Source: Apostichopus japonicus
Taxonomy: Eukaryota > Echinodermata > Holothuroidea > Aspidochirotida > Stichopodidae
Reading direction: 5' to 3'
Assembly (NCBI RefSeq): GCF_037975245.1
Contig: NC_092565.1
Location: forward strand, 10,596,499 to 10,660,498
DNA length: 64,000 nucleotides
In this document: in pieces, positions 8,301 to 54,189 of the stretch
Position numbering within the stretch: the stretch's first letter is position 1
Layout: every line of letters starts with the position of its first letter
Made by a program: the position numbers and the translations under genes
The notes under the pieces: generated by a model
Told to the model about the DNA's origin: nothing
The model's input: only the letters and a program-made list of their open reading frames with translations
Databases searched by the model: none

Positions 8301-11300
8301 CTTATCGATTTGAATTATGGGTGTTTTTAAAAAAAAGATAACTTGGCCAAAAAAATGTAGGCCCGGGCCTACAGTGCTACATACTGGCTACGCCCCTGAT
8401 CATATGATATCATTATCAGCAGATTTTGTTTCCTGTTTGAATTCTTTTACATGTTCTTTTACATAATATATCAGAAAGACAAACATATATCAGAAAGACA
8501 AACATAGTGCTCTCAGTGGCGGAGCTACGGGTATTGGTCAGTATGGGCGAGAATGATCTGTAGGGGCGCTTTCGACACAATCTAAGCGGAGCGCCACCAC
8601 TGGTTGGCGCGTAGCGTACAGACAATTTTTGAGTAAAGATACTCCCTAGATCGCCGGAAATGACCCTTTCCGGGCCTGGCTAATTTGCAGATAAACGAAG
8701 AATAAATAGGTGTCATCGCCAAATTACACCAACAAAATGTGACAAATGTCAATAAGTAGATGAGAGCGCAATAAAAAAGTCAATAATCTAGAATAAGTAA
8801 AAAGTGGTAAAGAGCTGAAAAGGGCGCCAGCAGTCCATTTGAGTCCGTCAGGGGGGGGGCATCCGCCCCCCTGACTGTATGGACGCTCCGCCACTGAGTG
8901 CTCTTTTACAATTTTTTCCAGTAGGATGATTCTTGTTTATTGTCCAATGTCTGGACTTTAATACATTTGACGAACTTAACTGATGGACAATATAAACTTT
9001 CATATTTTGTAATATAGCCAGATATGCAGTGGCCTAAAAACAAATATCGTTATCGCAGTGTATTAGCAGTGTAATACTTATTATAGGAAGTGCGTATCAC
9101 GTACGATTGCTAGCTTAGCTTCATAACATGCTGTTCGTGCAACAACTTACGACGACTCATAGAACGAACGTTGTCGACGTTGTTGTGCACACAGTTCGTG
9201 ACATTCCATAGAGTGCTGTTAGGTAGGCAATATGTATTTTATTACGCAGTGGCCAACTGTAGGCTTGTAATTGGCTATAAGCTAAATTTAGCTAATTGCA
9301 TCTACCAAACTAAGTAAGTATAGTTGAATGAGTAGGCGTGAATGTTACTACGATTACAATCGAGTTAACGGAGCTGACGAGTATTCCAGATCAAAAGAGC
9401 ACTGACAAAATACCATGCTAAAAAAACGACAGTTTAAAAAAAAAAATCGACACTGAAAGGGGGGGAGCAGTCGCTCCCCCTGCTCCCCACCTGGCTACGT
9501 CCCTGCACGGGGACAAGAATGTTTCTTAAATAAGATACACCTGTAGAGGAATGTTACGCTGCTATCACAAATCGCTTGACATAATCAGCATGCAGCCAAA
9601 CAGGTGCAGTCTGCACATTCAATACGTATATATAGCGTTCTCCTGCTATGATCTGCATTTCCGGACTACTCATTGCCTCAGTTTTGTCAGTCTGAGAGCA
9701 GAGTAAAACACTAGCAAAGGGTGACGTCATGTAAAGGGAATTCTGCCAACATCCCTGCTGGGTTTGTCTCCACTCAAGCCATGACAGAGTTGTGTCATTA
9801 AAAGCAATATACAAAAACTTCTCATAATTATATTTATTATATATGTTGCCATGAGAGTGTTCCAAATACATCCATCAATCCATCAAAACTCATTGCAATG
9901 GTGCACTGAGAGTGTCCAAGATATATTCAATAAATGAAATATCAGGATTGGGGTTATCGATTACATTTTTTGGAAGTAATAGTAATCGATTACTTCGATC
10001 AAAATGCAAAGGAATCTTAATAAATTATACTTTGGCAAAATAATCATACTTTACGATTACAAATGAAGTATCAATCAAAATTTGCTAAAATTAAAGAAGT
10101 GAAGACTTCAATGACACCATGCACAAGGGGTCTTCATTTTTCTTGGTAATGGGGGTGGGGGTGGGGGCGGGTGTTGAAAGCATACAGAATTGCTGCATAA
10201 TATTTTCAGTGTTAAGAAAGCTAGACATTTATTGTATCTATATTTCTGGATGAACAAGTACTACAGACTTACATACTCATTACGACAAACTTGAATCTTT
10301 TGAGAAGCATTCTCATTAATACTCATGCAGCTACAGTATGTGTAGAAAAAACGTTTCTTATCTTCATTTCTCTGTCTTTACTTCTGGCAATTAGTTTTGG
10401 GCACTCTGCCAGAAAACTTTGTAACCAATGACATTGGCAATGATAACAAAAAGAGGTATTACAGTAAATTACAACTATTGTTTATTTAGAATTCTTTCTT
10501 GTGGTTTTCCAATTCCTGTTTAAATTCCTACATATGTGACAATGATGATATTCATTACAGAAGAAGTGTGTGGGAAGGTGATCATTGGATTAGGCTGTTA
10601 GTTTAGTGCTTAATGATATCAGGCATGTACACCAGTTAGTGATAAATGATAACAAAACTCTAGAACTAGCCATAGCACACAGTCATAATTATGGAGTCTC
10701 TTCTTTTGTTTTATATTTTGTTGCACTTGGAATAACTTTGGCATCATTTGATTCACAGTGTAGTGTATTTGAACATTTTAACATGCCAAGTTTAGTGACT
10801 GAAAGCAGGTTAATTTTTTTCTTCACACAGAAAATTATATGTTATTGATCAGGGGTGGGCAACCTACGGCCTGCGGGCCACATGCGGCCTGCCAGTGATT
10901 TTTTTGCGGCCTGTGAGATGTCTCAAAATAAAGCAAAAAAATCTATTTTACATCATCACAAAAAACGAGCTGGCTGCTTAGAAATTATCGGCACTAATGG
11001 TGATGTCAGGTAGGCCTTTTATCCCCATTAATTATCAACTGTACTGTATTGACATTATGTTTTTGTGAATACAGATTAAGTACACACACCTATTGCTTGA
11101 AAGTCCTCGGAATCAAAGGTTTGAAATCAACAGCAGGTCATTGGTTAGTAGCTGCCCAGTCAATTTTTCACCCCTTATATCTGGCCCATTCATTCAAAAA
11201 GGTCGCCCACTCCTGATGTAGATATTTCTCAACTCATCAGCAATGTGTTACGGTTTGTTTGTTATAATTGAAAGTTTAATCTCTCTTATCAATATATAAA

Positions 11301-17300: not shown

Positions 17301-20300
17301 GGTAGTGGTGTTCTTATAGCAGTGATCCCTCAGAATCATCCTGAGACTGTCGATTGTTCTCGTCAGAAACCTAGCCAGCGGTCTCAGGGCTGCACTCTCG
17401 ATTTCACGATTTAGAATGACTGACCCCGCTGCTAGACACTGAAATATAAAGCATTTGTAACATTTTATCGATATAAACGAGGAAGACATGATCAATTAAA
17501 AGAACGTTGGATTAGTTTAACTTTGGATCAAGAAACATTGCACCATTCTGACCAAGGCATTTAATAATTGTTCTAGAAATTTAAGAAAGCCTGAAATGTT
17601 TAAGAGTTCAAGTATATATCCTTTTAACTGCCTCCCCCTCCCACCCCCCCCCCACAAAAAGAAAACCAGCTAAGCAAAATCTTTGTCAGATTGGGAAATA
17701 ACCTAGTTCAAATGTTGCATCTGGGTGCTGTCATTAGGTAAATCTGTGATGTCATAGTGCCCACTACAATACGATCTGTTCAAAAACGGTTTACTTTCTC
17801 CGTTTTTCTTTTCATATTTTCGACGTAGAATGTTGACAGTGCAGACACTGAAATTATTTCCCATAATGAGGTCATGTGAAGAGCTATTCCAATATTTTAT
17901 ATTCACCATTTGCAAAACTTGTAGAAAATATACTTTGTTATAAATGAATCAAAAAAATTGAAGAACACATGGCTTGATGATGTCATGTTTAGACTTGATC
18001 AAGTCTTCAGTCTTGTGTGTGAGGAACCATTAAGTCTGTGATATCAGTCTTGTGTGTGAGGAAGCATTAAGTCTGTGATATCAGTCTTGTGTGTGAGGAA
18101 GCATTAAGTCTGTGATATCAGTCGTGTGTGTGAGGAAGCATTAAGTCTGTGATATCAGTCTTGTGTGTGAGGAACCATTAAGTCTGTGATATCAGTCTTG
18201 TGTGTGAGGAACCATTAAGTCTGTGATATCAGTCGTGTGTGTGAGGAACCATTAAGTCTGTGATATCAGTCTTGTGTGTGAGGAACCATTAAGTCTGTGA
18301 TATCAGTCTTGTGTGTGAGGAACCATTAAGTCTGTGATATCAGTCTTGTGTGTGAGGAACCATTAAGTCTGTGATATCAGTCTTGTGTGTGAGGAACCAT
18401 TAAATCTGTGATATCAGACTTGTGTGTGAGGAACCATTAAGTCTGTGATATCTCCTACAAGGAATAAGACTTTTCTGAGCTATTTTGGGGATGTTGTTAT
18501 CTATGACAAATAATGTTGATTGGGTCTGTGCCTTTCTTTAAGGTAACACCAATGTACAAAAATTAACATTTTACCAAGTCACCTATAAACTCACCTCAGC
18601 ACCGAACCATAGTTGCCCACCTAGCGTCTCTTGTAAAACGTCGTCTGGAAACTTTGCCCTGAATTCTCTACTTGCTCTTTCATTTCCCAGAGAATCTTGC
18701 AGAATTTCTTCAATTATACCTTCAAGAAAATTTCAAGAAAAAAAACAAATGGTAAAACCAAAACCTAATTCTCTTTACTGAGATACAGGGGAAAGGGGAG
18801 AGCTAGGTCTGTGCTGTGATAAGCAAAACAAACATTACATACAGTAACATACTCTAAATTTCCCATTGCCATTGATTCTATGTTTGCACAGTAGCACCTT
18901 TGACTCAGCATGGTTTAAGAAAAGAAAACAACTCTGGCGGGAGATCCTGCCATGCACTCATCATGCTCATGTTCTAAAATTCCTTTCATTCACTTACATC
19001 ACATCTGCAGTACATCCACAGTTATTTCAACTACAGGAATCTTTTTGAACTGCCTGTAAAAACATTGCATAATCCTGGCAAATGTTAGTCTTCCTATGCT
19101 GTATGTACGTACAGCCAATGACACAGTGCCACTCTCAGCAGCATCCTGCTACAAATACTAGAACACAGAGCAGAAGCAGTCAAATCTTCTACATGGTGAT
19201 TTCCTTGACATTAATAAAAATTATGAAAACAGTCTTCCACACATACAGTACAGTAACGCATGTATCCATGTATGCTTAAAGTTTACATCATACAGTAGAC
19301 TCAGACTAGGTGGGAAAATTCTTATCAAGTGTTGCATCACCAATTACTATGCAAAATGGTCAAATTGCTATATATATATATGCACATGACATTTTGCCAA
19401 GATACTGTAGCACTTTAATGTGAACATAGGAATCATCACAGTTTAATAATCTGAGCAAGTCCAGAGCCTTCAAATTCTGCAACACAAACTTTGAACACTA
19501 AATTGAATTTGAACTAAATTATATCCTGGTGCCGGACACAATTTTCTAGGTTTTGTTATTGTAGAGAACAGAGTATCGTCAAATCGAAGTACACACTGTA
19601 CCCAAACTTGTAACATCAACATGCCTAAGTGATTATAACTGTGGACAGAAAATCCTATAGAGTACAGTATATACTGTACATACTGTAGCATGTACTCAAG
19701 GACTCACAGATCAAAACTGCTTCTGGTGCGTACTGGTGCGTACTATCTTTATTATGTACAGTAAATTGTCAATGTCAGAGGTGGCCCTAGATGGATCTTA
19801 CATGCAAAAATGAAATTTGGTACCTAATTTGTGTGCTGCAATACTTAAGCATTCCTTGTCTTTTAACAATGTACTTGCAATTTTATCCCTAAAATGATTG
19901 GGAGAAGAGCAATTTATAGCACGTCGTAAACATTATTAAAGTGAAATAATTTTTTTTTTCATTCGTCCCAACTTTCCAACAGGTTTAAATTGGTCTTACA
20001 ATTGTGTAATTTACATTCTCTCAGTTAGACATGAAAAGGTAGACAGTATTGTAACAAGATAGGTCCAAAACGTTGATCTGTTTTCGTATGCACTCATGTT
20101 GAGCAATGACACTTACCAAGCACTCTGTCTTGACATGTTCGCAGCCTGTTAACCAACACAGTACATCTTTCGGGATCCTGGCGTCCATCAAAACTGTCAA
20201 GTTCCTTAGAAATATCTACTAAGTCTAAATCAGCAAAGTAAAACCTACCAAGGGGATGGAAGTCAGTTTTCTATAAAAGATATAAACAAATTAGATAGCT

Positions 20301-22003: not shown

Positions 22004-23123
22004 CGCGGACCTTTTTCATATCAGACAAGTATTGGTTAAACCTACATAAACGTTACGATTGGTACAGAAAACCACTAAAAACTGTCAGAAATATTTGGTA
22101 TTTTGCTACACTTGCACAGTATGTTCGTTACTATATTGGTAAATTACCCAAAGCATGAGCTGGATGTTTCCAGTTTGCTTACTATTGACGCATCGGATAT
22201 CCTAGATTCATTATCACGCGTTCGGTAACAAACTTGTTGCGCTTCCAATGTGTTCACCTTGAATATTTATTATGTAGGCTACAAACATCCGGATATATGT
22301 ATTAAAAAAACTACAGAATGGAGGAGAGGAGTGGTTACAGCACGCATCAAACAGTTAAACCCAAAATATAAACTCAATATGGGTGTAGGTGGTGCAGGAG
22401 CCCAAAATATATCATAGGGTGCCTTAGTCATCAAACTTTAAAAACTTGTGCAAAAATATATATATTCCGCTGAGGTTAAGGTTGAATTTGCAAGTGACCA
22501 GTACTTTGCTATCAAAGTCCGCTTTAGCAGTATAGGTAGGTCATTTTTCATATTTATGTGACTAAAAGTTTCTTTTGCTTCTGTGAGAGAACACTATAAC
22601 CTTAGTCAAAGCCATACATAGGGACTTCAGATGGCCCGGAGAGGCTACTGGCAGTTACATGTTTGTAGATTTATTTATTGCAACTCTTTCACGGTAAAAT
22701 ATGCCTCTTTTTTTCTTTTGTGTAAAATCAAGGTCACCGATCTCTGCATGCACATTATATATCTCGAAAAGGACGACACTGAACCCGTTATTCTTGGCCT
22801 GCAAGCACTGACACCCGCAAATTATGCAAAACACTAGACAGAAATGAGATGCTATGTGGAAAACATGCGGTAGTTAATAATCCTTGTTCGGTGTAATTTC
22901 ATTCAGTTTCGTGTTTAGTCATGTGGTCTGCTTATTTTCTGCATACGCGGCATCGTTGATGACTGAAGTGAAGGGTTAATATAAGTCTTACTCAACCGCC
23001 TACACACTTCCAAGGTTGTAAACTCTGCTATAGTGTAATACTGCGTGCGCACCTAAAACGAAAGTACCTGCGGATATTACATCAGAGTTGTTCTTTGTAA
23101 ATGTGCTAAATTTAGACATAGGC
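22004..23123. other. Upstream flank of ZFYVE28 (5' UTR/promoter side), no recognised gene
   Basis: Should contain the ZFYVE28 5' UTR and promoter. No TATA box or CpG-rich block stands out. A short plus-strand frame at 22631-22837 was considered and not called. Confidence 0.4.
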
Positions 23124-23309
23124 TTAAAGAGGCCATGACACGAAAAATCCAACTCATCGAGAGTAACTTCCTCTGAATCTATGAGAAAATCTATGTTCAA
23201 AACTATCCTCAACACCTTGAAAACCTCAAGGACTAATTAGTAATTAACGTTTTAATATTCGCATCCGAAAATAGATATCTGAGAATGCGATTTCACAACA
23301 AGACAATGA

Positions 23310-23317
23310 TGACGTCA
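23310..23317. promoter_or_regulatory. CRE palindrome TGACGTCA upstream of the THAP ORF
   Basis: A perfect TGACGTCA 168 bp before the THAP-like ATG, inside the left end of the TTAA element. The role is inferred from motif identity and position. Confidence 0.4.
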
Positions 23318-23484
23318 TGTTAGGAACACACGTGCAAAGCTCAGGCATGTATCGGATGCGCGACGATCATACCGTTCCATATACAGTACACGCACATTTA
23401 CACTGAGAGAACAACCACTGTATTACGCTATATCGTTAGAAATTTCAAGTTTGTTTTACAACTGTTGTAAACTATCCGAGAGAA

Positions 23485-23730
23485 ATGCCGGTCCGTTGTG
23501 TTGTTGGGGCTGCATAAATATCATTACCCATGCAATTAGCCTTCATCCATGGCTGAAGGACGAAAAAAAACACGGCGATTATGACCAAGTTAGTGCACAA
23601 CACCAGCGCCGATTTCACTGGACCTAGCCAGTATGCAGCTCCGAATGAAGCGAACACTTCACGGAAGCATACTACGATCCCTCCTTTTTGTTATGAAATA
23701 AAACAAATGGACTTTAACGGTTCGACATAA
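23485..23730 (+). pseudogene. Decayed THAP-type zinc-finger ORF
   Basis: Reading starts at MPVRCVVGAA then meets a stop. A second frame reads HPWLKDEKKHGDYD and a third KLVHNTSADFTGPSQYA. Together these resemble the THAP pattern (MPxxCxVxGC, ISLHPWPxDE, WxxxVxRxxADFxGPSxYS). At least two frameshifts and a stop break it, and the first zinc cysteine pair is incomplete. The family binds DNA and occurs in P- and Kolobok-type transposases. A TGACGTCA palindrome lies 168 bp upstream. Confidence 0.5.
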
Positions 23731-25068
23731 AAAAGTCATTCTTCTGTCAAGTAATCCACAAAAAACTACTCTGAAGACCAGATCGGGGAACAGAAAACCT
23801 CCAATGGGGCAAGTGGCGGTCCTTAGGAGGTAGCGCGCCGAGCACTAGTAGTACTATAGTATTAGCGTTACTACACTGAAGTCGCAATAGACGAAGAGAT
23901 TTTACTGTATCATCTAAATTAACACCCCCTTCATTGCTCTATTGTATACTAATAAGCTATGAGGTTAGCTTCAGAAGCGATGGGTTACATCTTCTTGTGA
24001 ACAAATCTCAGTGCCCCAATTTATTCTGGAATATGCTGGATCAGTTAATTATAGCAATAATTTCTTATTCCTATTCCAGGAAAACCATTTATTATGTTGT
24101 GGAGGGAGTGGGGTAATGGGGATGGGTCAAAATAGGTAGGTAAAAAGATTTTATTCCAAAGGTTGTTTAATTAAATCTCAAAGCGATTTATTTTAAAGTC
24201 ACAGAGCCAAAAATTCACACAACATAGTTCAAGTGTTAAATCATTGAACAAAATTTATTCAATATCAGTTCTAGACAGTCATTCTGGACAATCTGAACTA
24301 ACATTAACAACAATCATTGTATTATATGACATAAAAGTAAAACTGTACTTTCCATAAACATTATCATTCTTAAATTACACTAATGTAATTTGTGACATCA
24401 AAGGAGGTTAAAAGAAAACAACTTACATGAATTTTTTGCTTTAAGCCTACAAAGCAGTTGCATGTCCATCGCTATCAATCGTTGTTGTGACAAATTAATT
24501 AGAATAATCCAGAAGCAAATACAATACAGGGTTATTTAAACCAAGAAACACTGCACGACGCAACTCACATGCAAAAATGTTACCCACGCACGACGACACG
24601 TACAACACTGATGGGCAATGTGAAACACAGCATCACACGCATTAAAACAATCGAAGACCATTAACAGGGTGTACTGCTGAGTTTTTGAAGAAAGACTACA
24701 AAACAAACCAACTGCTGCTGAAGAAACAGTCTAAACATTCAAGAGTTCTGCTGCCTCCATTGGTCTTTATTATGACTTTTCTGTCAAATATCATTGGTGA
24801 TATGGATATTTTGGCTTCCAGATTAAAGGTACGAATCAAACGAGGTAAATGCCCCTAAAAAGGTCAATGCCCGTTCCCTTATGCACATTTTATATGACAT
24901 CACGGTCACGCCAATACTTGTGTCCAAATGCTTCAAAACATGCCTTTTCTTTTATTGTTGATGTTGGGTCTGGAAAATAACCTTTTCATCCTGAATTAAA
25001 AGTCTTGAATTTCAATATATCAACACTGAGGGAACCCTGACGGATTGATAATCCAACACAATCGTAGT

Positions 25069-25953
25069 TTAGAAAGGCTTCCTATACAATGAGTTTTCTC
25101 CTGGCAACTTGAATCCAGTGTAATGACCATTGGCTGGAAAATCACTTCTGATCCTTTGGACTGCACATGATGGTAGCACAACCCTGACGTGTCTTGCTAG
25201 GAACCCCAAGTATCATTGAACCTGTTGACCGTAGGCTATGTATCTGTACTGCCTGGGAAAAAATTTATGAAAGTTCAAAATGTATTAATGTTGGCCATGA
25301 TGTCCACAATAACAAGCAGGCACACAATGTACAGTTATGGTTACATTTGTTGTGATTTTACACCTTCCATGTATCATGAAACATTCTTTTGTTTCAGAAA
25401 ATTGATTTGCAAAACTCCAGGCCAAAGTACTAGCCAAGTAATAATGAGTATGAAATAACACATATGCCTACCTAGCATGGCTGCATAATGCAACTTACAT
25501 CCCCGAGCCAAACTTTCAGTATGCAACCAACCCTACTAGTACTACACACTCTACATATGGGTTGTAAGTTACCGTAACACAACGCACAATACGGTTTAGG
25601 GTGTTCCGCGAATTCCAACAACACATGCACAAAATGGACTGGATTTTGTTTTTAAATGCTTCGTTAATAAATTCTTACCACGTTGTATGTTCCTTGCAAT
25701 GGTTTCGAACGGATTTCTTCTTCGATATGTTGTGGAGCTTCAATTTCGGCTCGTTTAACAGGCTCGAACTGATACGGTTCTAACACCTCCGCTCCACCCT
25801 CAGCGTTCGGTTCAATATTGGAATGATCATCGCCTTCACTCTCTGCTTCGAATATGAGAAAGGGCACTCTAATTATAGCCCAATTTCACTGCCTAGTGAA
25901 GAACCATAATCACTTTGAACTTCGGTTGCCGCATTTGGCTCTGGATCCGCCAT
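25069..25953 (-). pseudogene. P2X7 C-terminal 'ballast'-like ORF, disabled
   Basis: Exon 1 (25953 to 25679) starts MADPEPNAATEVQ. After a frameshift near 25870 it continues with acidic sequence and LEPYQFEPVKRAE, like the xxPYxFEP signature that opens these proteins, and ends at a GTAAGA donor. A downstream exon (25252 to 25069, acceptor CCCAG) reads QYRYIAYGQQVQ, a TGA (25215-25213) where relatives have Trp, then YLGFLARHVRVVLPSCAVQR and IRSDFPANGHYTGFKLPGE. This matches the conserved core (YRYTAYRQ, RVVLPSCAVxxIR). The Cys-rich WCxCGxC segment normally between these parts was not found. Such domains occur in P2X7 receptors and in large multicopy families of invertebrates labelled P2X7-like. 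This copy looks dead. Confidence 0.75.
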
Positions 25954-26086
25954 TTCACAGGAAATTTTGATTTGATATCGCACTTGTGATCGGTGTTTTG
26001 TTTAGTAACTACTAGTGGTATGTGTACTTGTCTACTGTGTACGTGAATGGTACCGTAGCAGCGACAACAAATATGTGTTCAAAACG

Positions 26087-26104
26087 TGACGTCACATGAC
26101 GTCA
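26087..26104. promoter_or_regulatory. Paired CRE palindromes upstream of the P2X7-like ORF
   Basis: Two perfect TGACGTCA sites (26087-26094 and 26097-26104) separated by 2 bp, about 135 bp before the minus-strand ATG. They mirror the site at the other end of the element. Confidence 0.45.
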
Positions 26105-27173
26105 TGCGAATCGGAAAATTTTCGAGTAAACAAAGTTTCAAACGCCGAAAAGGGTAAATTCATTCTCAATTTTCGACTTGAAAAATCAAGTTTTAAACTG
26201 GCAGATTGGTTGATACATGTTTTAGAGAACATTCTTTGATGGATCCCAAAAATATAGGACTTTGAAATTTTCGTGTCATGGCCACTTTAAAGGCATTGAA
26301 GACTCGCCCTAAACAGTTGCGCCGTCTTTAAAAAGCTAACTTTCCGGCCCATATTTTGCGATCATAGCAAGAGGGCAAATTTCATTCACATTGAGTAATA
26401 AAGACGCGCACAGTGGCGGCGGAACCGGGGGGCTTGGGGGGCTCAGCCCCCCCCCCCAATAAAAAAGTTGAGGGGGCAAATGCATGATAAGCCCCCCCAA
26501 TATTTACCAAGGCTCCGAAACGTGCATCTGCCCATTTTTCAATGCATACTTGTCGATCTGTCCGATGCACACGTAAACTATATAGGTGTAATAATTTTAG
26601 TAAAGGCTGGGGGACCCTCGGACCGTCCCCTGGCTATAGACCACATTGTCACCCCAACCGCGTCTTCACGCCCCGTGAAAAGTGGAAGCAGTGTGTGTGA
26701 GTACCGGTACACTACGATTACACGCAAGGTGTGGAACATGGCTCTTTGTTTAAACGCAATAATTATTAAACGAACAAACTCACAATATTAGCATTTCACC
26801 TGTACTGTATAGGGTACTAAATCGCGACAGTGCGTGGTTCATAGAAATTTGTTGGCAACTGCACATAGTTTTGGACTTACCCATTTGTTGACATTAAGAA
26901 ATGCTTTCTGTTTTTTCTTATGACATTTATTTAATTATTGCATTTAATTGCAAGTACCGTAGTAATTTACTACACTCAAAAACGTCTTTGCGAGTACCGT
27001 AGCTACTCTCTTAAAACACCATCGAATGTACAAATTACAATGTTTTTTACAGATTTTTACGTGCAATCTGAGAAATTGCAGGCTTGAGACCAGGGGCGTA
27101 GCGAGCGGGGGTGTGGGGGGTGTCACACCCCCCAATAATTTGGTCGCTGTCGGCAAATTTTGGGTCTGTCGGC

Positions 27174-28267
27174 CAGTGGCGGCGGAACCGGGGGGGCTTG
27201 GGGGGGCTCAGCCCCCCCAATGAAAAAGTTGAGGGGGCAAATGCATGATAAGCCCCCCTCAATATTTACCAAGGCTCCGAAACGTGCATCTGCCCATTTT
27301 TCAATGCATACTTGTCGATCTGTCCGATGCACACGTATACTATATAGGTGTAATAATTTTAGTAATTGCTGGGGGACCCTCGGCCCGTCCCCTGGCTATA
27401 GACCACATTGTCACCCCGACCGCGTCTTCACGCCCCGTGAAAAGTGGAAGCAGTGAGTGTGAGTACCAGTAAGCGTAACACAACTTCGTCTTAGGCCAAT
27501 GACTTGCCTCATTTCAGCCAGTTCTCCAACATCCCCTTACTTAGTGGCGGAGCGTCCATATATACAGTCAGGGGGCGGATGCCCCCCCCCCCCCCCGACA
27601 GACTCAAATGGACTGCTGGCGCCCTTTTCAGCTTTTCACTATACTTTTTACTTATTCGCTATTATTGACTATTTTATTGCGCTCTCATATACCTATTGAC
27701 ATTTGTCATATTCTGTTGGTGTAATTTTCCGACAAAATGGCGACGACACCTATTTATTCTCCGTTTATCTGCAAATTAGCAAGGCCCGGAAAGGGTGATT
27801 TCCTGCAATCTAGGGAGTATCTTTACTCAAAATTTTTCTGTACGCTCCGCGCCAACCTGTGGTGGCGCTCCGCTTAGATAGTGTCGAAAGCGCCCCTACA
27901 GACCATTCTTGCCCCCCCCCCCGACCAATACCCCTAGCTCCGCCACTGCCCTTACTACACTCAAAAACGTCTTTGCGAGTACACTACGAGTATAATAGCT
28001 ACTCTCTTAAAACACCATCGAATATACAAATTACAATGTTTTTACAGACTTTTTGCGTGCAATCTGAGAAATTGCAGACTTGAGACCCATATTTTAGGGC
28101 TAGGTATTCGCAGCATAAAACACACGGGAAGTGCCGTTTCCGGCCATCTGGGGGTTTGAAATAACCCAAAATTTTCTTGTACGCTCCGCGCCAACCGATG
28201 GTGGCGCTCCGCTTAGATAGTCTCCACACATTAGCCCCCCAATAATTTTTCCGTTCCGCCGCGCCTG
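27174..28267 (+). mobile_element. hAT element D, inserted in B (second copy of family A)
   Basis: Ends CAGTGGCGGCGGAACCGG and CCGTTCCGCCGCGCCTG; target duplication CTGTCGGC at 27166-27173 and 28268-28275. Its first 300 bp closely match 26411-26700. It is interrupted by element E and carries the shared hairpin module near its right end (about 28130-28222). Confidence 0.92.
27542..27948 (-). mobile_element. hAT MITE E, inserted in D (same family as 8514-8896)
   Basis: Inverted ends TAGTGGCGGAGC (first base mutated from C) and GCTCCGCCACTG; target duplication CCCTTACT at 27534-27541 and 27949-27956. In reverse orientation it matches the 8514-8896 element over most of its length, including the hairpin module. 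Confidence 0.92.
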
Positions 28268-31030: not shown

Positions 31031-31038
31031 ATATACCA

Positions 31039-32222
31039 TGCATGGAAGCCACTTGGTCCCCAGTGTACTGAAGCATACATGGAAGCCACTTGGTCCTCAG
31101 TGTACTGAAGCATACATGGAAGCCACTTGGTCCCCAGTGTACTGAAGCATACATGAAAGCCACTTGGTCCCCAGTGTACTGAAGCATACATGGAAGCCAC
31201 TTGTCTCCAGTGTACTGAAGCATACATGGAAGCCACTTGGTCCCCAGTGTACTAAAGCATACATAAAAGCCACTTGGTCCCCAGTGTACTGAAGCATACA
31301 TAGGGGCCACTTGGTCCCCAGTGTACTGAAGCATACATGGAAGCCACTTGGTCCCCAGTGTACTGAAGCATACATGGAAGCCACTTGGTCCCCAGTGTAC
31401 TGAAGCATACATGGAAGCCACTTGGTCCCAAGTGTACTGAAGCATACATAAAAGCCACTTGGTCCCAAGTGTACTGAAGCATACATAAAAGCCACTTGGT
31501 CCCCAGTGTACTGAAGCATACATGAAAGCCACTTGGTCCCCAGTGTACTGAAGCATACATGGAAGCCACTTGGTCTCCAGTGTACTGAAGCATACATAAA
31601 AGCCACTTGGTCCTCAGTGTACTGAAGCATACATAAAAGCCACTTGGTCCTCAGTGTACTGAAGCATACATAGAAGCCACTTGGTCCCCAGTGTACTGAA
31701 GCATACATGAAAGCCACTTGGTCCCTAGTGTACTGAAGCATACATGGGGGCCACTTGGTCCCCAGTGTACTGAAGCATACATGGAAGCCACTTGGTCCCC
31801 AGTGTACTGAAGCATACATGGAAGCCACTTGGTCCCAAGTGTACTGAAGCATACATAAAAGCCACTTGGTCCCCAGTGTACTGAAGCATACATAAAAGCC
31901 ACTTGGTCCCCAGTGTACTGAAGCATACATGGGGGCCACTTGGTCCCCAGTGTACTGAAGCATACATGGAAGCCACTTGGTCTCCAGTGTACTGAAGCAT
32001 ACATGGGGGCCACTTGGTCCCCAGTGTACTGAAGCATAAATAAAAGCCACTTGGTCCCCAGTGTACTGAAGCATACATAGAAGCCACTTGGTCCCCAGTG
32101 TACTGAAGCATACATGAAAGCCACTTGGTCCCCAGTGTACTGAAGCATATATGGAAGCCACTTGGTCCCCAGTGTACTGAAGCATACATGGGGGCCACTT
32201 GGTCCCCAGTGTACTGAAGCAA
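31039..32222. repeat. 37-bp minisatellite, about 32 copies
   Basis: Unit begins GAAGCATACATGGAAGCC and ends CAGTGTACT. The variable positions fall at GGAA/AAAA/GGGG after ACAT and at CCCC/CTCC/CCAA. One unit near 31200 is 36 bp. Because 37 is not a multiple of 3, an open minus frame cycles through all three readings and gives an apparent 37-residue protein repeat. Confidence 0.97.
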
Positions 32223-33279: not shown

Positions 33280-33815
33280 CTGGCTACGCGCCTGATGATT
33301 CGTACTAGATAGTTGTTGCACGAACAGCATGTTATGAAGCTAAGCTAGCATTCGTACGTGATACGCACTTTCTATAAATAATTATTACACTACTAACACA
33401 CTGTGATAACGACATTTGTTTTTAGGACACTGCACATCTGGCTGTCTTACAAAATATGCAAGTTTATATTGTCCATCAGTAAAGTTTGTCAAATGTATTT
33501 AAGTCCAGACAATGGACAATAAACAAGAATCATCCTACTGGAAAAATTGTAAAAGAGCACCATTTTTGTGTTTCTGATATATTATGTAAAAGAACATGTA
33601 AAAATTCAAACAGGAAACAAAATCTGCTGATAATATGATATCATATGATAATGATGAAACTGGCAAAATATTGCACCAGATCGAATCTAAGGACCTTCAA
33701 TTGTTGAAAAATCTCCCAAAGGGGAGGGGACACCCCATCCCCTTAGACCCCTCCACCATATCAATCGCAACAAAAGTGCTCCCCCCCCCCTTCAAATTCC
33801 TGGCTACGTCGCTGA
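33280..33815 (-). mobile_element. Inverted fragment of the 7573-9505 hAT family
   Basis: 33300-33660 reads as the reverse complement of about 8395-9150 without the nested 8514-8896 MITE (shared TTGCACGAACAGCATG, CCAGACAATGGACAATAAAC). The right side (33663-33813) matches element B's 139-bp unit and ends CTGGCTACGTCGCTG. No target duplication identified, so this may be two joined pieces. Confidence 0.65.
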
Positions 33816-35755: not shown

Positions 35756-35918
35756 TGGTCCTGGGATGAATCCTGGGATGAATCCTGGGATGAATCCTGG
35801 GATGAATCCTGGGATGAATCCTGGGATGAATCCTGGGATGAATCCTGGGATGAATCCTGGGATGAATCCTGGGATGAATCCTGGGATGAATCCTGGGATG
35901 AATCCTGGGATGAATCCG
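35756..35918. repeat. 12-bp satellite (CCTGGGATGAAT)n, about 13 copies
   Basis: Near-perfect array starting directly after the hAT flank duplication and ending where the 15-bp array begins. Being a multiple of 3 without stops, it is open in several frames; these are not genes. Confidence 0.97.
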
Positions 35919-36285
35919 GGATAGCTCGACCTGGGATAGCTCGACCTGGGATAGCTCGACCTGGGATAGCTCGACCTGGGATAGCTCGACCTGGGATAGC
36001 TCGACCTGGGATAGCTCGACCTGGGATAGCTCGACCTGGGATAGCTCGACCTGGGATAGCTCGACCTGGGATAGCTCGACCTGGGATAGCTCGACCTGGG
36101 ATAGCTCGACCTGGGATAGCTCGACCTGGGATAGCTCGACCTGGGATAGCTCGACCTGGGATAGCTCGACCTGGGATAGCTCGACCTGGGATAGCTCGAC
36201 CTGGGATAGCTCGACCTGGGATAGCTCGACCTGGGATAGCTCGACCTGGGATAGCTCGACCTGGGATAGCTCGACCTGGGATAGC
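35917..36285. repeat. 15-bp satellite (CCTGGGATAGCTCGA)n, about 24 copies
   Basis: Essentially identical units. The shared CCTGGGAT core with the adjacent 12-bp array suggests one seed gave both. The array ends at GATAGCTTCAGGTTGG. It lies about 250 bp upstream of the PYROXD2 start codon. Confidence 0.97.
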
Positions 36286-36538
36286 TTCAGGTTGGTGCGC
36301 AAAGGACTTTGTAAACATTGGCGGATGGCAACACTGGGCCTTTTTGCCCCTCGAAAGAACGAAAAGCAAGCAAGTTGAACTTGAAGAGGCCTATACCTCC
36401 GGAGTAGGCTAGACTAGGTCGTCCATTGATGAGCTCGGCTAGTGCTAAAAACAGTGGGACGAAGTTAGTCTCAGCAAATTGCTCCCGCGGGATCCAGTAA
36501 CTAATTCGATATAGCCTAGTTAGTATTTGCAGTAGGAA

Positions 36539-48500: not shown

Positions 48501-51261
48501 ATCAAGTCTTCAGCCTTGTCTGTGAAGATGTGATAAAACCTGTGATATCTCCCAAATGGAATAATGTTTGTCTTTACAGAGCCTGTTTGGGCAAGTTGTT
48601 CATGACAGCTATTTCTATCACATAAGACTAATTATGATATTTGGGTCTGTGTCTCCTCCGTTAACTTATAATACCATACATGGTGTTAATGTAAAGTTAA
48701 TCTGGTTTATTTTCCTTCCTGTATTCTAGTATTTGATGCGGTCGAGCAGTATGCTCCAGGATTTAAGGACAGTATTGTGGGTGCTGATATTCTACCGCCA
48801 CCAGAACTAGAGAGAATATTTGGTTTAACAGGAGGAGTAAGTTCTTTATCGTTTTTGTAATCGTTCAATTCATTAATAGAAATATTTGGCATAAGATATG
48901 TTACTTAATTTCATTTGGACATGCTCATTGTAAAGTCTTGCTGAGTGGTAGCCTTAAAGGAGTTTTTTGTCCCTGGAGGGAGGGAGGGAGTGGGAGGGAG
49001 GGAGGGGAAGGGAGGGAGGGGGATGGAGGGAGAGGGAGGGAGGGTGGAGGCAAGGGGCAGGAAGCAGGTTGTTGGTAATTCGTCAAAGTGCTCTCCCGCT
49101 CGGATTTTAAGTCCAGCAGTCTTTCTTTGATTTCAAAGTCAGTGAGTTTCATGAAGACAATACTACCACGAGTGGGCAGGGTGCACATTTCCGACAGTCC
49201 ACAAGTTACCAATCCTAACTTATTAATGCCGCCTTCAGCAGAGCACTTCACATTATGCAACCAAACATGAAATAGATATGCTACAGGGTAGTTTGCATAT
49301 GTTAGGGGGTTGCCTTTACTTGTGGTAGGAAATTAAAAAAAATTAATAAGACATCAATATCAGCTGCTCGTTGTTTGAATGTTTTGTTTGTCTTTTTGCT
49401 CATCTAATCTTTGACCTCATTATGAACTCATTACCTAAATTTGTGTATGTTTACGTGTATATGTTTATGTGTATGTTTATTAAGGCATTTCTCTCTATGC
49501 TAAGTGTGGAATGTTTACTAATTAGTGAAACATCATCTCCATTGAGGCATTTCTCTGTATGCTAAGTGTGTAATGTTTACTATTAGTGAAACATCATCTC
49601 CATTGAGGCATTTCTCTGTATGCTAAGTGTGGAATGTTTACTATTAGTGAAACATCATTTCCATTGAGGCATTTCTCTCTATGCTAAGTGTGTAATGTTT
49701 ACTATTAGTGAAACATCATCTCCATTGAGGCATTTCTCTGTATGCTAAGTGTGGAATGTTTACTATTAGTGAAACATCATCTCCATTGAGGCATTTCTCT
49801 GTATGCTAAGTGTGTAATGTTTACTATTAGTGAAACATCATCTCCATTGAGGCATTTCTCTCTGTGCTAAGTGTGTAATGTTTACTATTAGTGAAACATC
49901 ATCTCCATTGAGGCATTTCTCTGTATGCTAAGTGTGTAATGTTTACTATTAGTGAAACATCATCTCCACTGAGGCATTTCTCTGTATGCTAAGTGTGTGA
50001 TGTTTACTATTAGTGAAACATCATCTCCATTGAGGCATTTCTCTGTATGCTAAGTGTGGAATGTTTACTTTTAGTGAAACTAAGTGTGTTAGAATGTTGA
50101 ATGTAATCCCAATTGTTATCACAGAATATCTTCCACGGGGCATTGTCACTGGATCAGCTGTACCTAGCCAGACCATACACGTGGTGTTCCAGTTACCGCA
50201 CCCCAGTCAAAGGGCTTTACCTCTGTGGCAGTGGAGCCCATCCAGGTAAGGGTTGTTATTGGTTTTATGATAACATGATCTTAAAATGAGGTATTGAGTA
50301 GAAACTCGTGGAGGGCGGGTGGACAATGGAAAGGCAATGGACTTGCAATCAAAGGATTGCAAGTTCCATTCCCCGGTCAGGAAAAGGCAGTTAACCTTCA
50401 TTGCCTCTCTTCACCAAGGTGTGTAAATGGGGACTTGCAAAATCACTTTTATCTTGTTGTTTGTGCCGGTTTGTGGCTGGAAGTCGGCCAGTGAACACAT
50501 AAATATGGGATAAAGATGATAAATGTATTCCTATTTCCATAATAAAATTGAGAGCAATTTAAGAGTGGAATATGGGACACCAAAGTGACATAATGTTCCC
50601 CCCTTTGGTTGTGAGGTGACTCTTGATGCCTCTGGGGAGTATGTCCTCCATCTTGATATCATGGCAGTGCAAGGTGTTTTAAGTATGGCTGTTACTTAAG
50701 ATAAAAAGCAATGTACTGAAAATATAAATAAACGAAATAATACATGATCAAAAGAGGGTTATTATTCACTGTTGTCAGGATATTTCAAACTATTCAAGTA
50801 TTGCATACACACTCTTAAAGGTAGTCAGTATAGGCCCCAAATTATAGCACGCTATGATTGTTTTCAAAAAGGACTTTCCTTGAGGTCTTTACTCACCAAA
50901 TCGTTCTCAGACAATTTTAAGGAACGCACAAGATGACTTAATGTCCCACTGATGAAAATTTCCTACAAAGGTTGTAATAAACCAGTCTAAGAATTTTGAC
51001 CAAAGGTGACCATATTTGAGTATCTAGCATATTTTGGGCCAATACAGCATAACTTTAGGGACATATAATAGACATTAGACAACAAAGATGTCATATGTTA
51101 TTGATCAAATTATACTTGCAATTACCTGGATGGAAAGAATATTGTTGTTTGCTAGTGTTTTGATAGCTTCTCTTTCCCTCTCGTTGACAGGTGGTGGTGT
51201 GATGGGAGCACCCGGGTATAATTCTGCCCAGATCGTCAAGACGGATTTTGCAGCTATGTGA
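36539..51261 (+). CDS. PYROXD2: PYROXD2, mitochondrial FAD-dependent oxidoreductase-like protein (complete, 15 coding exons)
   Basis: Exons: 36539-36551, 38229-38383, 39840-39933, 40266-40339, 40629-40784, 41675-41828, 42827-42888, 43635-43732, 44460-44601, 45784-45991, 46725-46881, 47789-47943, 48730-48836, 50125-50245, 51191-51261. The lengths sum to 1767 nt, 588 residues plus TGA; human is 581. All junctions are AG/GT and in phase. The 13-nt first exon (MASL + G) is inferred from phase, a strong GTAAGA donor and an in-frame TAG 6 nt upstream; it gives a basic, Arg/Lys-rich N-terminus that suits a mitochondrial presequence. Domain signs: the Rossmann FAD motif [13 protein letters not shown] at about residue 44, [68 protein letters not shown], and the C-terminal flavin-binding [19 protein letters not shown]. 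The family is related to CrtI-type phytoene desaturases and is mitochondrial; its exact reaction is not settled. The introns carry a MITE (36.7 kb), a duplication (42 kb), a 37-bp-unit relative (48.5 kb) and a 61-bp satellite (49.5-50.1 kb). Confidence 0.97.
36664..36939. mobile_element. MITE in PYROXD2 intron 1
   Basis: Perfect 16-bp inverted ends AGTATTGCGAAGTTCG and CGAACTTCGCAATACT. The interior repeats GCGAAGTTCG at 36687, and CGAACTTCGAAG recurs at about 37124. The target duplication is unclear. Confidence 0.75.
41975..42270. repeat. Tandem pair of about 180-bp repeats in PYROXD2 intron 6
   Basis: CATCTGTGACTCGTCTATGA through TTATGAATGTCCATGTTGGA is repeated from about 42163 with minor changes. 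The first copy ends in a 9-bp-arm palindrome, GAATGTCCA-TGT-TGGACATTC. Confidence 0.8.
48330..48660. repeat. Dispersed repeat copy 2, unexpanded form, in PYROXD2 intron 12
   Basis: Homologous to 17735-18660 but with a single version of the 37-bp unit (about 48508-48550, TCAGCCTTGTCTGTGAAG). Confidence 0.65.
48973..49062 (+). repeat. GGGA purine tract (G4-prone) in PYROXD2 intron 13
   Basis: About 90 bases of nearly pure GGGA/GGAGG on the coding strand, 137 bp after the exon ending at 48836. Capable of G-quadruplex formation on the transcript. Confidence 0.8.
49482..50085. repeat. 61-bp satellite, about 10 copies, just upstream of PYROXD2 exon 14
   Basis: Unit begins GGCATTTCTCTGTATGCTAA and contains TTTACTATTAGTGAAACATC. 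Spacing of successive units is 61 bp. The array ends about 40 bp before the acceptor at 50124 and so abuts the branch-point region of that intron. Confidence 0.95.
50815..51055 (+). repeat. Inverted repeat arm 1 (pair with 53650-53900)
   Basis: AGGTAGTCAGTATAGGCCCC to GGGCCAATACAGCATA matches the reverse complement of 53650-53900 over about 240 bp. It lies in the last PYROXD2 intron; the other arm is beyond the gene. Confidence 0.85.
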
Positions 51262-52194
51262 ATGCAGAGATTTCTATGTATGTTTTCAATTTGCTTTAAA
51301 GGCTCAACACTCATTTTATTTTTGATAATGTGACGTACGTAGCAAGTCACAAACAAGTTTTTGGGGAAAAGGCTAAATGTTTACATGGTTTATAGTAATC
51401 ATACACAGCTTCTGTTTCTATTGTCTGCAAGTTTGGCAGCATTAAGATGTTAGAGCATTTGGTTGTTTTCAAATACACAACAGCATTCACTTTTTGATTT
51501 AGGAATAAGGCATAGGGTGTGTGAGTTCTCTATCAGTACTTTGAGCATTATTATTAACTAGTAATTAATAAGTATTCATTTCTCGCAGTGGGTTAACACA
51601 TTCACTTTTCAACGGTGGCTTATTTGTACGGATCAGGCATTGTGTGGCGTGTGTAATATTAAACGCAGCTGGTCTTGCATTCAGTAATTACACATATTCC
51701 CTTTATACTTAAATAACATGTTTCATTTCCTGCAGTATAACATTCCTTTGCACAGAACTATAATGACAATTTGCTTTCATTACTGTGAGATCGGATTTGT
51801 GAAGACTGTTTACTTTTCGAGACAAGCATGAAACCTTTGTAATACTAAGTAGATGTACCTAGCCATACACCATGGTTTGGAGTGAAGTAGCCTTTCATTA
51901 TTACATCCAAAGTAGACATTTTAACACAAAATATAAAAACTTGATATTTCACTTGTGTAAATAGCATTGCATTATTAAAATGAGTTAATCTGCCCAAGGA
52001 GGTATATTAACTTGGCTTGTGCTTTCTTTCATGGTTGATGAGAGAATGGTTGGGTAGAGTGCAGTGGCAACAGTAGGCCGGTGCTCCAGGGAGGCCTGGT
52101 GTCATGGACCAAAAAATAAGACAAGTTTTAATATTAGAAGATTGTTTTCATCTTTTTATATCTTAAATAACGCCAGGCCCACTTACTTTTACAC

Positions 52195-52860
52195 GTCTTA
52201 AATACTGTTATGTACAGTTTTTTTGAAGTTCTCTCCCGATACCCACCAAATTGGGAATTCAGACAAAACCCTTTCCACAACAGAGGCCTGGTCACACTAC
52301 AGAGATATTTTATCGGAATACGGTCTGATTTTTCCGATTTTAGGCCGAAGAGTGAGGTTTGTGGTGGTGAATGTAATGAATGTAATGGAATATTCGAATA
52401 CCTACTCCAAACCTGAGGGGTTCTGGAACGGACTACATTCTGAAGTGACGTCACATCGAAAATACGAAAAACGATAAAAATCGGAAGAGAAATCGGGTAG
52501 CTATCCGATAAAAGAAAACGGAGTCAATATCAAAAGTTAGGAGAGAGCTATTCCACATCGGAATGGCTCAACAGATAGCAAATCAGGTCCTTTATCACTG
52601 TGGCTAGAAGACCCGAACGAAAAACAGGCTGTTTTGATTCCTCCTGGAAAATCGGATAGTATTCCGATAAAAAATCGGTATAGTGTGACCGGGCCTTAAG
52701 AGTGCTATATTTGGTAGTGTAAAGGTGCCAAATTTACATAAAAAAACAGTCTCAATCAAGCCCAAACCATAATTGGGATTGGGAAAATTTGGACTCTTCT
52801 TTGGGGACCCATTTCAATTGCTGCACCTGGGCCAGGTTGCCCCTTACTACACCACTGGGT
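52195..52860 (+). repeat. Dispersed repeat, copy 2 (interrupted by a MITE)
   Basis: Collinear with 1-260 apart from the MITE at 52284-52696. Confidence 0.7.
52284..52696. mobile_element. MITE with GGTCACACTA ends
   Basis: Inverted ends AGGCCTGGTCACACTA and TAGTGTGACCGGGCCT. The interior is rich in ATCGGA/TCCGAT words. Its absence from the copy at 1-260 fixes the insertion point near CAACAG/AAGAGTG. Confidence 0.85.
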
Positions 52861-53168
52861 GTATGGGAGGATTGGGAGAACCGTTTCTGCATGTTATCAT
52901 GAGCCAGTATTACTCCATTATGAGAGTAAGGTGTAAGTTGGGTAAGCGCGGTTACTGCCCAGAACTTAGTTAAGCAAGGTAAGAGGTTTCTTCAAGTTTA
53001 AAGATGTGCTAATTTGTGCTTGCAAAGAGGTTAATTAACATAATTATGTATTGTATCCAAATCTTCATTCCTAGTCGTTGTTCTTCCATGAATATTTATG
53101 CAAAGCTCAAAGAGCATTTTACTTTTGATATAATTTCGATTGAATAATCCTTCATAATCATGTCAATT

Positions 53169-53533
53169 TTAAGGCATTGAAAACTCGCCCCAAACCGTGT
53201 GCCATGCTCTGAAAAAGTTAATTTTCCATTTCTTGCAACTGAAGTTTTCTTCTTGTCGCTACAAAATGCAGACAGTAATGAAACGTGATACCTTGTTATT
53301 TTTTATCTAGACCTGAGATGTCCACCGCTGCTATGTACACTGTATTGTGGGTATTGACTGTAGCTGTATGTATTGACTGTACACTAGTGTCTAATTACTG
53401 ACGGTAGCAAACTGTGTGTGTATTTTCTGGGGTCGATGTTGGTGTCTAACACTTCTGTTACACCTCATTCGAAACTAGGTCAGATTACCGGCATGAGACG
53501 TTTCTTTGTGAGACGAGTCTTCACACCCTTTAA
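53169..53533 (+). mobile_element. TTAA-flanked MITE, copy 1
   Basis: Starts TTAAGGCATTGAAAACTCGC and ends GTCTTCACACCCTTTAA, bounded by TTAA on both sides; the ends are imperfect inverted repeats sharing GAAGACTCG. About 90% similar to 60435-60801. A truncated left end adjoins the THAP/P2X7 element at 26287-26362. Confidence 0.8.
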
Positions 53534-53649
53534 TGTATTCTTTACTTGTATTTGTTTTTCTTCTTGTGTAATTGAACACTCCTCAATGTGTGGAAGTAAT
53601 TTGGAGATCCGCAGGCTAAAATTAGGGGCCAATAATGATGACATTTAAA

Positions 53650-53900
53650 GATATGCTGTATTGGCCCCAAATATGCTAGATATTCAAATATGGTCACTTT
53701 TGGTAAAAATTCTTAGATTGTTTTTATTACAACCTTCGAGTAAATTTTCCTCACTGGGACATTCAGTCATCTTGTGTGTTCCTTAAAAAATGTCTGAGAA
53801 CAATTTGGAGGGTAAAGACCTCTAGGAAAGTACTTTTTGAAAACTTCTAGCAATTAAAGCGTGTATAATTTGGGGCCTATACTGACTACCTTTTTAATTG
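53650..53900 (-). repeat. Inverted repeat arm 2 (pair with 50815-51055)
   Basis: Reads ATGCTGTATTGGCCCC to GGGGCCTATACTGACTACCT, the reverse complement of arm 1 with scattered mismatches. Confidence 0.85.
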
Positions 53901-54189
53901 TGTTATGCTTTTTTAATGTGATGAAATCCTGTTCAATACAGGGTTATAACTGATGACTGGACAGATAAAGTTATATTTATACAGCTTATGAAATTGTTTA
54001 AATTTCAATCCAGGATGGTTTTTAGCAATTCTGAAATCTTTTTTTAGGCTGGGTTGTTTTCAAATATGACCCAACAGATACCATCACAATATATTTAAGA
54101 AAATGGTACTACTTGATCACAAGAGAAAATTCAACACAAGAACAAGCAGTTCCAATCAATCATGGTTTGAAAGCACACAGAACTTGTTT

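What the first reader, a model, noticed from the sequence alone, without database searches (positions are those of the whole stretch)
23124..26290. A TTAA-flanked mobile unit carrying both a THAP finger and a P2X7-ballast-like ORF
Seen: inverted ends (TTAAAGWGGCCATGACACG) 3.2 kb apart, a decayed THAP ORF reading inward from the left and a decayed P2X7 C-terminal-like ORF reading inward from the right. Known: THAP domains occur in P and Kolobok transposases, Kolobok duplicates TTAA, and P2X7-ballast-like proteins are highly multicopy in echinoderms and cnidarians without the receptor channel. Inference: those copies may have spread as passengers of, or components in, TTAA transposons.
Basis: partly seen in the sequence, partly recalled or inferred. 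Interest (0 to 1): 0.8.

Follow-up and report, generated by a model that had tools for sequence, protein, structure and literature searches.

The report
Non-autonomous Kolobok transposon with gene fossils
The stretch is one copy of a young, many-copy jumping DNA family of the Kolobok kind that carries broken remains of its parent's two genes, one of them from the protein family behind the P2X7 receptor tail, a link that was published in 2022.

Summary
The window holds a 3.17-kb unit with 29-nt inverted ends, TTAA at both sides, a broken THAP finger reading in from the left and a broken P2X7 "ballast" exon from the right. In the host genome (671.6 Mb) the 19-base end has 596 matches, the reversed pattern 24. 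Of 100 listed places, 66 form 33 inward pairs under 6 kb; all 33 have one AGA and one AGT end, and 28 span 3,114-3,221 bp. The 20 pairs fetched, of the 33, are all copies of the window unit. Most copies share the same disabling stops, so the unit was already dead when it spread: a non-autonomous transposon, presumably moved in trans.

Elsewhere, ballast genes lie tail-to-tail with Kolobok transposase C-termini (20 of 30 loci), and three THAP-ballast pairs 8-9 kb apart are convergent. This is the Kol0 layout of Kolobok: transposase plus KolX. That KolX has the ballast fold and is the likely source of the P2X7 tail was published by Kojima and Bao in 2022. The autonomous partner with these ends was not found.

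The parts
23124..23127 (.). TTAA target-site duplication, left copy
   Evidence: sequence; TTAA is part of the matched end
23128..23152 (+). left terminal inverted repeat, AGAGGCCATGACACGAAAAATCCAA (the AGA end)
   Evidence: AGA/AGT asymmetry in 33 of 33 pairs
23485..23835 (+). broken THAP exon (N-terminus of a Kolobok transposase), frameshifted, stop codons inside
   Evidence: tblastn with the intact THAP exon of L084: E 3.5e-12 at 23508-23693 and 8.7e-8 at 23485-23835 in another frame; Pfam alone negative
25105..25254 (-). broken last part of KolX / P2X7 ballast exon (profile about 143-192), one in-frame TGA; preceded by a splice-acceptor-like TTTTTTCCCAG
   Evidence: Pfam P2RX7_C 33.4 bits E 5.4e-8; tblastn with the ballast frame of L052 E 1.8e-9; acceptor-like sequence
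25680..25953 (-). probable broken KolX N-terminal exon (MADPEP...EPYQFEP...), ending at a donor-like GTAAGA; inferred, no profile match
   Evidence: six-frame reading; no meaningful Pfam match
26262..26286 (-). right terminal inverted repeat (the AGT end)
26287..26290 (.). TTAA target-site duplication, right copy
   Evidence: sequence

Best explanation
The unit is a non-autonomous Kolobok (Kol0-type) DNA transposon. It descends by internal deletion and decay from an autonomous element that encoded a THAP-DDE transposase from the left end and KolX, the ballast-fold protein, from the right end, tail to tail. The founder had already lost the catalytic part of the transposase and the zinc-cluster part of KolX and carried frameshifts and stops. 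It kept the two ends, and a transposase made by another Kolobok copy cut it out and pasted it into TTAA sites, giving a young family of perhaps up to about 300 copies. Shown: ends, TTAA, shared stops, copies, low divergence, convergent transposase and KolX genes in the same genome. Inferred: the deletion history, mobilisation in trans, and the identity of the helper element, which was not found.
For: End matches 596 vs 24 for the reversed control. Of 100 listed end places (the listing stops on C9), 33 inward pairs under 6 kb, all 33 with one AGA and one AGT end, 28 of them 3,114-3,221 bp. The 20 pairs fetched, of 33, are all copies of the window unit; the longest aligned piece is 91.6-99.2% identical, and 5 of the 20 are split by indels or insertions. 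The window unit also matches the DNA just inside all 30 of the first 30 end places, 12 of them unpaired in the listing. No 200-bp flank of the 21 units matches another unit's flank at E 1e-8. Ballast tblastn hit in 20 of 20. Ballast TGA in 19 of 21 aligned copies, THAP Cys-to-TGA in 19 of 21; median pairwise divergence 1.6%. No transposase in the unit by two searches and no zinc-cluster exon: 0 of 23 (window unit, 20 copies, L084, L085) at E<1e-3, best 0.22, against 30 of 30 ballast loci elsewhere. Intact THAP exon 350 bp inside an AGA end at C9:22148410. Transposase C-terminus convergent with ballast in 20 of the 30 best ballast loci. L081 holds a 550-aa transposase frame (Pfam Mutator 33.2 bits, cut-off 26.5) convergent with a stop-free ballast frame (115 bits). 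Termini AG/CT and TTAA agree with the Kolobok definition in PMC9587614.
Against: No autonomous element with these exact ends was recovered; L084 and the part of L085 that was read also show no transposase. TTAA in the fetched copies is partly circular, since the search pattern contained it. No empty site was found among the sequences held and the genome query for the window's own site did not complete. 34 of the 100 listed ends had no listed partner. 10 of 30 ballast loci showed no transposase in their 1.5-kb flanks, and the profile used was built from five of the 30 loci, several of which are near-identical copies. The window's THAP remnant is below Pfam's reach on its own.
Confidence: 0.93

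Rival explanations
1. A piggyBac-type TTAA transposon. [quoted passage not shown]
For: TTAA duplication; only the C-terminal part of the ballast remains; passage in PMC9587614 section 12.
Against: Termini are AG/CT as in Kolobok (5'-RR, YY-3'). A THAP finger sits inside the AGA end. Ballast genes in this genome are convergent with transposase frames; the one in L081 carries a DxxH stretch as described for Kolobok and matches Pfam Mutator. No piggyBac search was made.
Confidence: 0.04
2. Two separate MITEs landed by chance on either side of decayed host genes.
For: 34 of 100 listed ends have no listed partner.
Against: 33 of 33 inward pairs are AGA plus AGT, 28 within 107 bp of one length, the whole interior is shared by the 20 of 33 pairs fetched, and interior sequence also adjoins the unpaired ends looked at (12 of 12).
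Confidence: 0.005
3. Segmental or tandem duplication of host THAP and P2X7-like genes rather than transposition.
For: Copies are very similar.
Against: No flank of the 21 units matches another unit's flank at E 1e-8; the listed pairs lie scattered over C1-C9 in both orientations.
Confidence: 0.005

Closest known systems
Kol0 lineage of Kolobok DNA transposons (Kolobok-1_XT type; Kojima and Bao 2022, PMC9587614)
   Same: TTAA target duplication, 5'-RR/YY-3' termini, two genes of which one is the KolX ballast protein (sections 3 and 16 read, section 12 seen as a passage)
   Different: The window copy is an internally deleted, non-autonomous derivative with both genes broken; its transposase core and zinc-cluster exon are missing
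Xenopus Kolobok elements (XKol) and the T2-MITE family (PMC6004289)
   Same: THAP finger in the transposase, AG termini, TTAA sites, non-autonomous MITE relatives (passages seen)
   Different: XKol full-length copies in the table seen are 6.8-13.9 kb; the word KolX is not in that paper (it is not among the papers holding 'kolx' and 'kolobok')
P2X7 receptor ballast (zinc-coordinating cysteine) domain and nanor (Rump et al. 2020, PMC7016195)
   Same: Same domain family, Pfam PF20478 for P2X7
   Different: There the domain is fused to a channel or stands in a short protein; the passages report few (<10) genes per species and the strings 'transpos' and 'mobile' do not occur in the main text, whereas this genome has 471 candidates, 150 of them scored and all 150 over the cut-off

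Membership tests
Kolobok superfamily | TTAA 4-bp target-site duplication | tested here: met
   TTAA at both ends of the window unit and of 20 of 20 fetched copies, partly circular as the pattern held TTAA; empty site not shown
Kolobok superfamily | termini 5'-RR ... YY-3' | tested here: met
   AG ... CT; definition from PMC9587614
Kolobok superfamily | DDE transposase with C/DxxH motif in the element | tested here: not met
   no transposase core found in the window unit; such a frame lies beside a ballast gene in L081. Expected for a non-autonomous derivative, so the claim is 'derivative of', not 'autonomous member'
Kolobok superfamily | THAP finger at the transposase N-terminus (as in Xenopus Kolobok) | tested here: met
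   broken remnant, E 3.5e-12 against the intact THAP exon of L084, which shares the left end; Pfam negative on the window itself
Kol0 lineage | second gene KolX with the ballast fold | tested here: met
   broken C-terminal exon, P2RX7_C 33.4 bits; Cys-cluster part not found
KolobokP | long terminal direct repeats of about 450 or 660 bp | tested here: not met
   longest direct repeat found in 22600-26800 is 22 nt
KolobokP | His-Me finger nuclease | not tested
   no separate search made
piggyBac | piggyBac transposase in the element or its relatives | not tested
   no piggyBac profile search was made in the genome; the termini are Kolobok-type by the definition

The most novel reading that the evidence does not exclude
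KolX is a working second protein of Kolobok transposition, set tail-to-tail with the transposase and kept under selection, so the ballast domain of P2X7 would be a reused transposition cofactor; this genome, whose 16 best ballast matches are stop-free, is a natural place to test it. The window family would be a parasite of that two-gene system that can do without its own KolX.
Probability: 0.4. Interest if true: 0.55.

Novelty: new member of a known kind. Interest (0 to 1): 0.3.

Why it matters
It gives an independent confirmation, in one whole genome, that many P2X7-ballast-like genes are parts of Kolobok transposons and not receptor relatives. Gene annotations that call such genes 'P2X7-like' should be read with transposons in mind. 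The claim itself was published in 2022, so the interest is moderate. What remains open is what KolX does in transposition and what the P2X7 receptor kept of it.

Tried and rejected
Pfam and PDB searches of the window's own THAP frames, plain and read through, gave no THAP; a relative was needed. A transposase remnant was looked for in the window unit and not found. The end pattern gave no match in viral contigs, and the ballast exon no relative there. L084 and L085 were fetched as possible autonomous parents; no transposase was found in either, though L085 was read over 4.6 kb only and its family stretch begins at unit position 1019.

THAP and ballast matches of the whole genome were crossed using 145 of 145 THAP rows and 89 of 150 ballast rows. 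Left out were the 60 lowest rows, each with one TGA, and the second piece of the C12 gene at C12:21120509. Four pairs lie within 25 kb: three are 8.1-8.8 kb apart and convergent, the fourth is 21.6 kb apart and not. About 0.1 convergent pairs within 10 kb are expected if sites were spread evenly. Both lists are capped first-look lists, so 142 of 145 THAP rows have no convergent ballast partner in them.

The selection estimate on KolX is mixed: of 16 pairs with a defined ratio, values run from 0.03 to 2.37, 14 below 1 and two above (L051-L066, 2.37; L058-L062, 1.09); two further pairs had no synonymous change; several pairs are not independent, and only pairs with 70-99.9% nucleotide identity were printed. 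Taxonomic identity of the host was not established. The transposase list of the genome, a THAP list seeded from L084 and the empty-site query did not complete.

Full report
What is there. The two ends TTAAAG[A/T]GGCCATGACACG are real and without mismatch, at 23124 and 26290, with 0.02 matches expected by chance at up to 3 mismatches. They extend to a 29-nt inverted repeat, 26 of 29 matching. TTAA is present at both ends and the element itself begins AG and ends CT. Between them, on the minus strand at about 25105-25254, lies a piece of the P2X7 ballast domain (Pfam PF20478, 33.4 bits against a cut-off of 23.5; tblastn with the L052 ballast frame 1.8e-9). On the plus strand from 23485 lies a THAP exon that Pfam does not see in its broken state but that matches the intact THAP exon of L084 with E 3.5e-12.

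It is one copy of a family. The window lies at C5:10596499-10660498 of a genome of 671.6 Mb. The end pattern with up to two mismatches has 596 matches there; the reversed pattern has 24. Of these, 100 places were listed, on C1 to C9. They contain 33 inward pairs under 6 kb, and in 33 of 33 one end is AGA and the other AGT; 28 of 33 span 3,114-3,221 bp. Twenty of the 33 pairs were fetched, and all 20 are copies of the window unit, 91.6-99.2% identical over the longest aligned piece, five of them with larger indels or insertions. The 34 unpaired ends count against a tidy picture, but the window unit matches the DNA just inside all 30 of the first 30 end places, 12 of them unpaired, so those look like truncated or older members. 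No flank matches another unit's flank at E 1e-8. If all 596 matches were ends, up to about 300 copies could exist; this is an upper estimate.

It spread when already broken. In an alignment of 21 copies the TGA inside the ballast exon is shared by 19 (L040 and L046 differ), and the TGA in place of a THAP cysteine by 19 (L037 differs, L038 is deleted there). The lowest 60 of 150 ballast matches in the genome all show one TGA. Of these 60, 19 fall in the range covered by the end listing: 17 lie inside listed pairs, the window's own among them, and 2 within 3.3 kb of a single listed end; 41 are outside the listing. Median divergence between copies is 1.6%. No transposase core was found, nor the cysteine-cluster part of KolX: 0 of 23 (window unit, 20 copies, L084, L085) at E<1e-3, best 0.22, against 30 of 30 ballast loci elsewhere. 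Older relatives (L040; L085, 90% identical) lack the ballast stop. The simplest reading is a non-autonomous transposon moved by a transposase made elsewhere; that step is inferred.

Where the parts come from. The genome has 471 ballast candidates, of which 150 were scored and all 150 passed the cut-off; the best 16 are stop-free. Around the best 30, with 1.5 kb of flank, a transposase C-terminus lies convergent with the ballast frame in 20; where found it was always convergent. The profile for this was built from five of these loci, and several of the 30 are near-identical copies, so 20 is not 20 independent cases. L081 (which contains L059) shows the transposase frame, with GDGRCDSPGHS, TDAH, DVWH and LESFNNH stretches that I read as the DDE and DxxH signatures (the assignment is my reading); Pfam calls it Mutator-like, 33.2 bits. 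Of 145 THAP matches, one intact and one broken lie 350 and 371 bp inside an AGA end of this family, as the window's lies 361 bp inside its own. Crossing 145 THAP with 89 of the 150 ballast matches gave three pairs 8.1-8.8 kb apart, all convergent, and one 21.6 kb apart that is not. These sizes fit full-length elements, but their interiors were not read.

Comparison with the known. Kojima and Bao (PMC9587614; outline, passages and sections 3 and 16 seen) state that Kolobok duplicates TTAA, has 5'-RR and YY-3' termini, that the Kol0 group encodes a transposase and KolX, that KolX shows clear similarity to the P2X7 C-terminus and adopts the cytoplasmic ballast fold, and that P2X7 arose by fusion of a P2X4-like gene with KolX. 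The Xenopus paper (PMC6004289; passages seen) states that Kolobok transposases usually have a THAP domain and gives AG termini and TTAA sites. Rump et al. (PMC7016195; passages seen) describe the ballast domain across animals; the strings 'transpos' and 'mobile' do not occur in its main text. A search for 'P2X7' with 'Kolobok' found two papers; the other holds each word once (listing only). What is new here is one more family, in one more genome, with its layout worked out.

Function of KolX. Pairs of ballast frames give dN/dS from 0.03 to 2.37, 14 of 16 below 1, on small counts and with related pairs. This points to some selection on KolX in the live families but is not strong. The cysteine cluster of the ballast is visible in the six longer KolX frames aligned, by my reading of the alignment.

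Limits. The helper element with the same ends was not found, the empty site was not shown, and the host was not identified. TTAA in the fetched copies is partly built into the search. The KolX N-terminal exon at 25680-25953 is a reading without a profile match.

Noticed in passing
window 50807-53903: Another unit of about 3.1 kb with long inverted ends (143 nt at 85%, plus 59 and 40 nt at 90%), TTAAAGGTAGTCAGTATAGGCCCC at one end and TTAAAAAGGTAGTCAGTATAGGCCCC at the other; possibly a second Kolobok/T2-like element.
   Followed up: partly
window 31037-32221: Array of 32 copies of a 37-bp unit, 93% matches, open in several minus-strand frames.
   Followed up: no
window 35759-36286: Adjoining minisatellites of 12 and 15 bp, 99-100% matches.
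   Followed up: no
window 18007-18452 and 49479-50080: Tandem arrays of a 37-bp unit (12 copies) and a 61-bp unit (10 copies).
   Followed up: no
window 8445-9147 with 27539-27914 and 33311-33603: Dispersed inverted repeat arms up to 177 nt, mostly 89-97% complementary, another repeat family.
   Followed up: no
L033, just outside both ends: The copy at C1:13662671 has the same ten bases (ACATATTACT) close to both ends outside the TTAA.
   Followed up: no
L085: Two members of the family lie side by side: an older 90% copy with an uninterrupted ballast exon and a second right-end part of 85%.
   Followed up: partly
G000:C12:21120509-21121105: A ballast gene whose cysteine part (65-127) and last part (151-191) are separate matches, suggesting an intron inside the domain in some families.
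   Followed up: no
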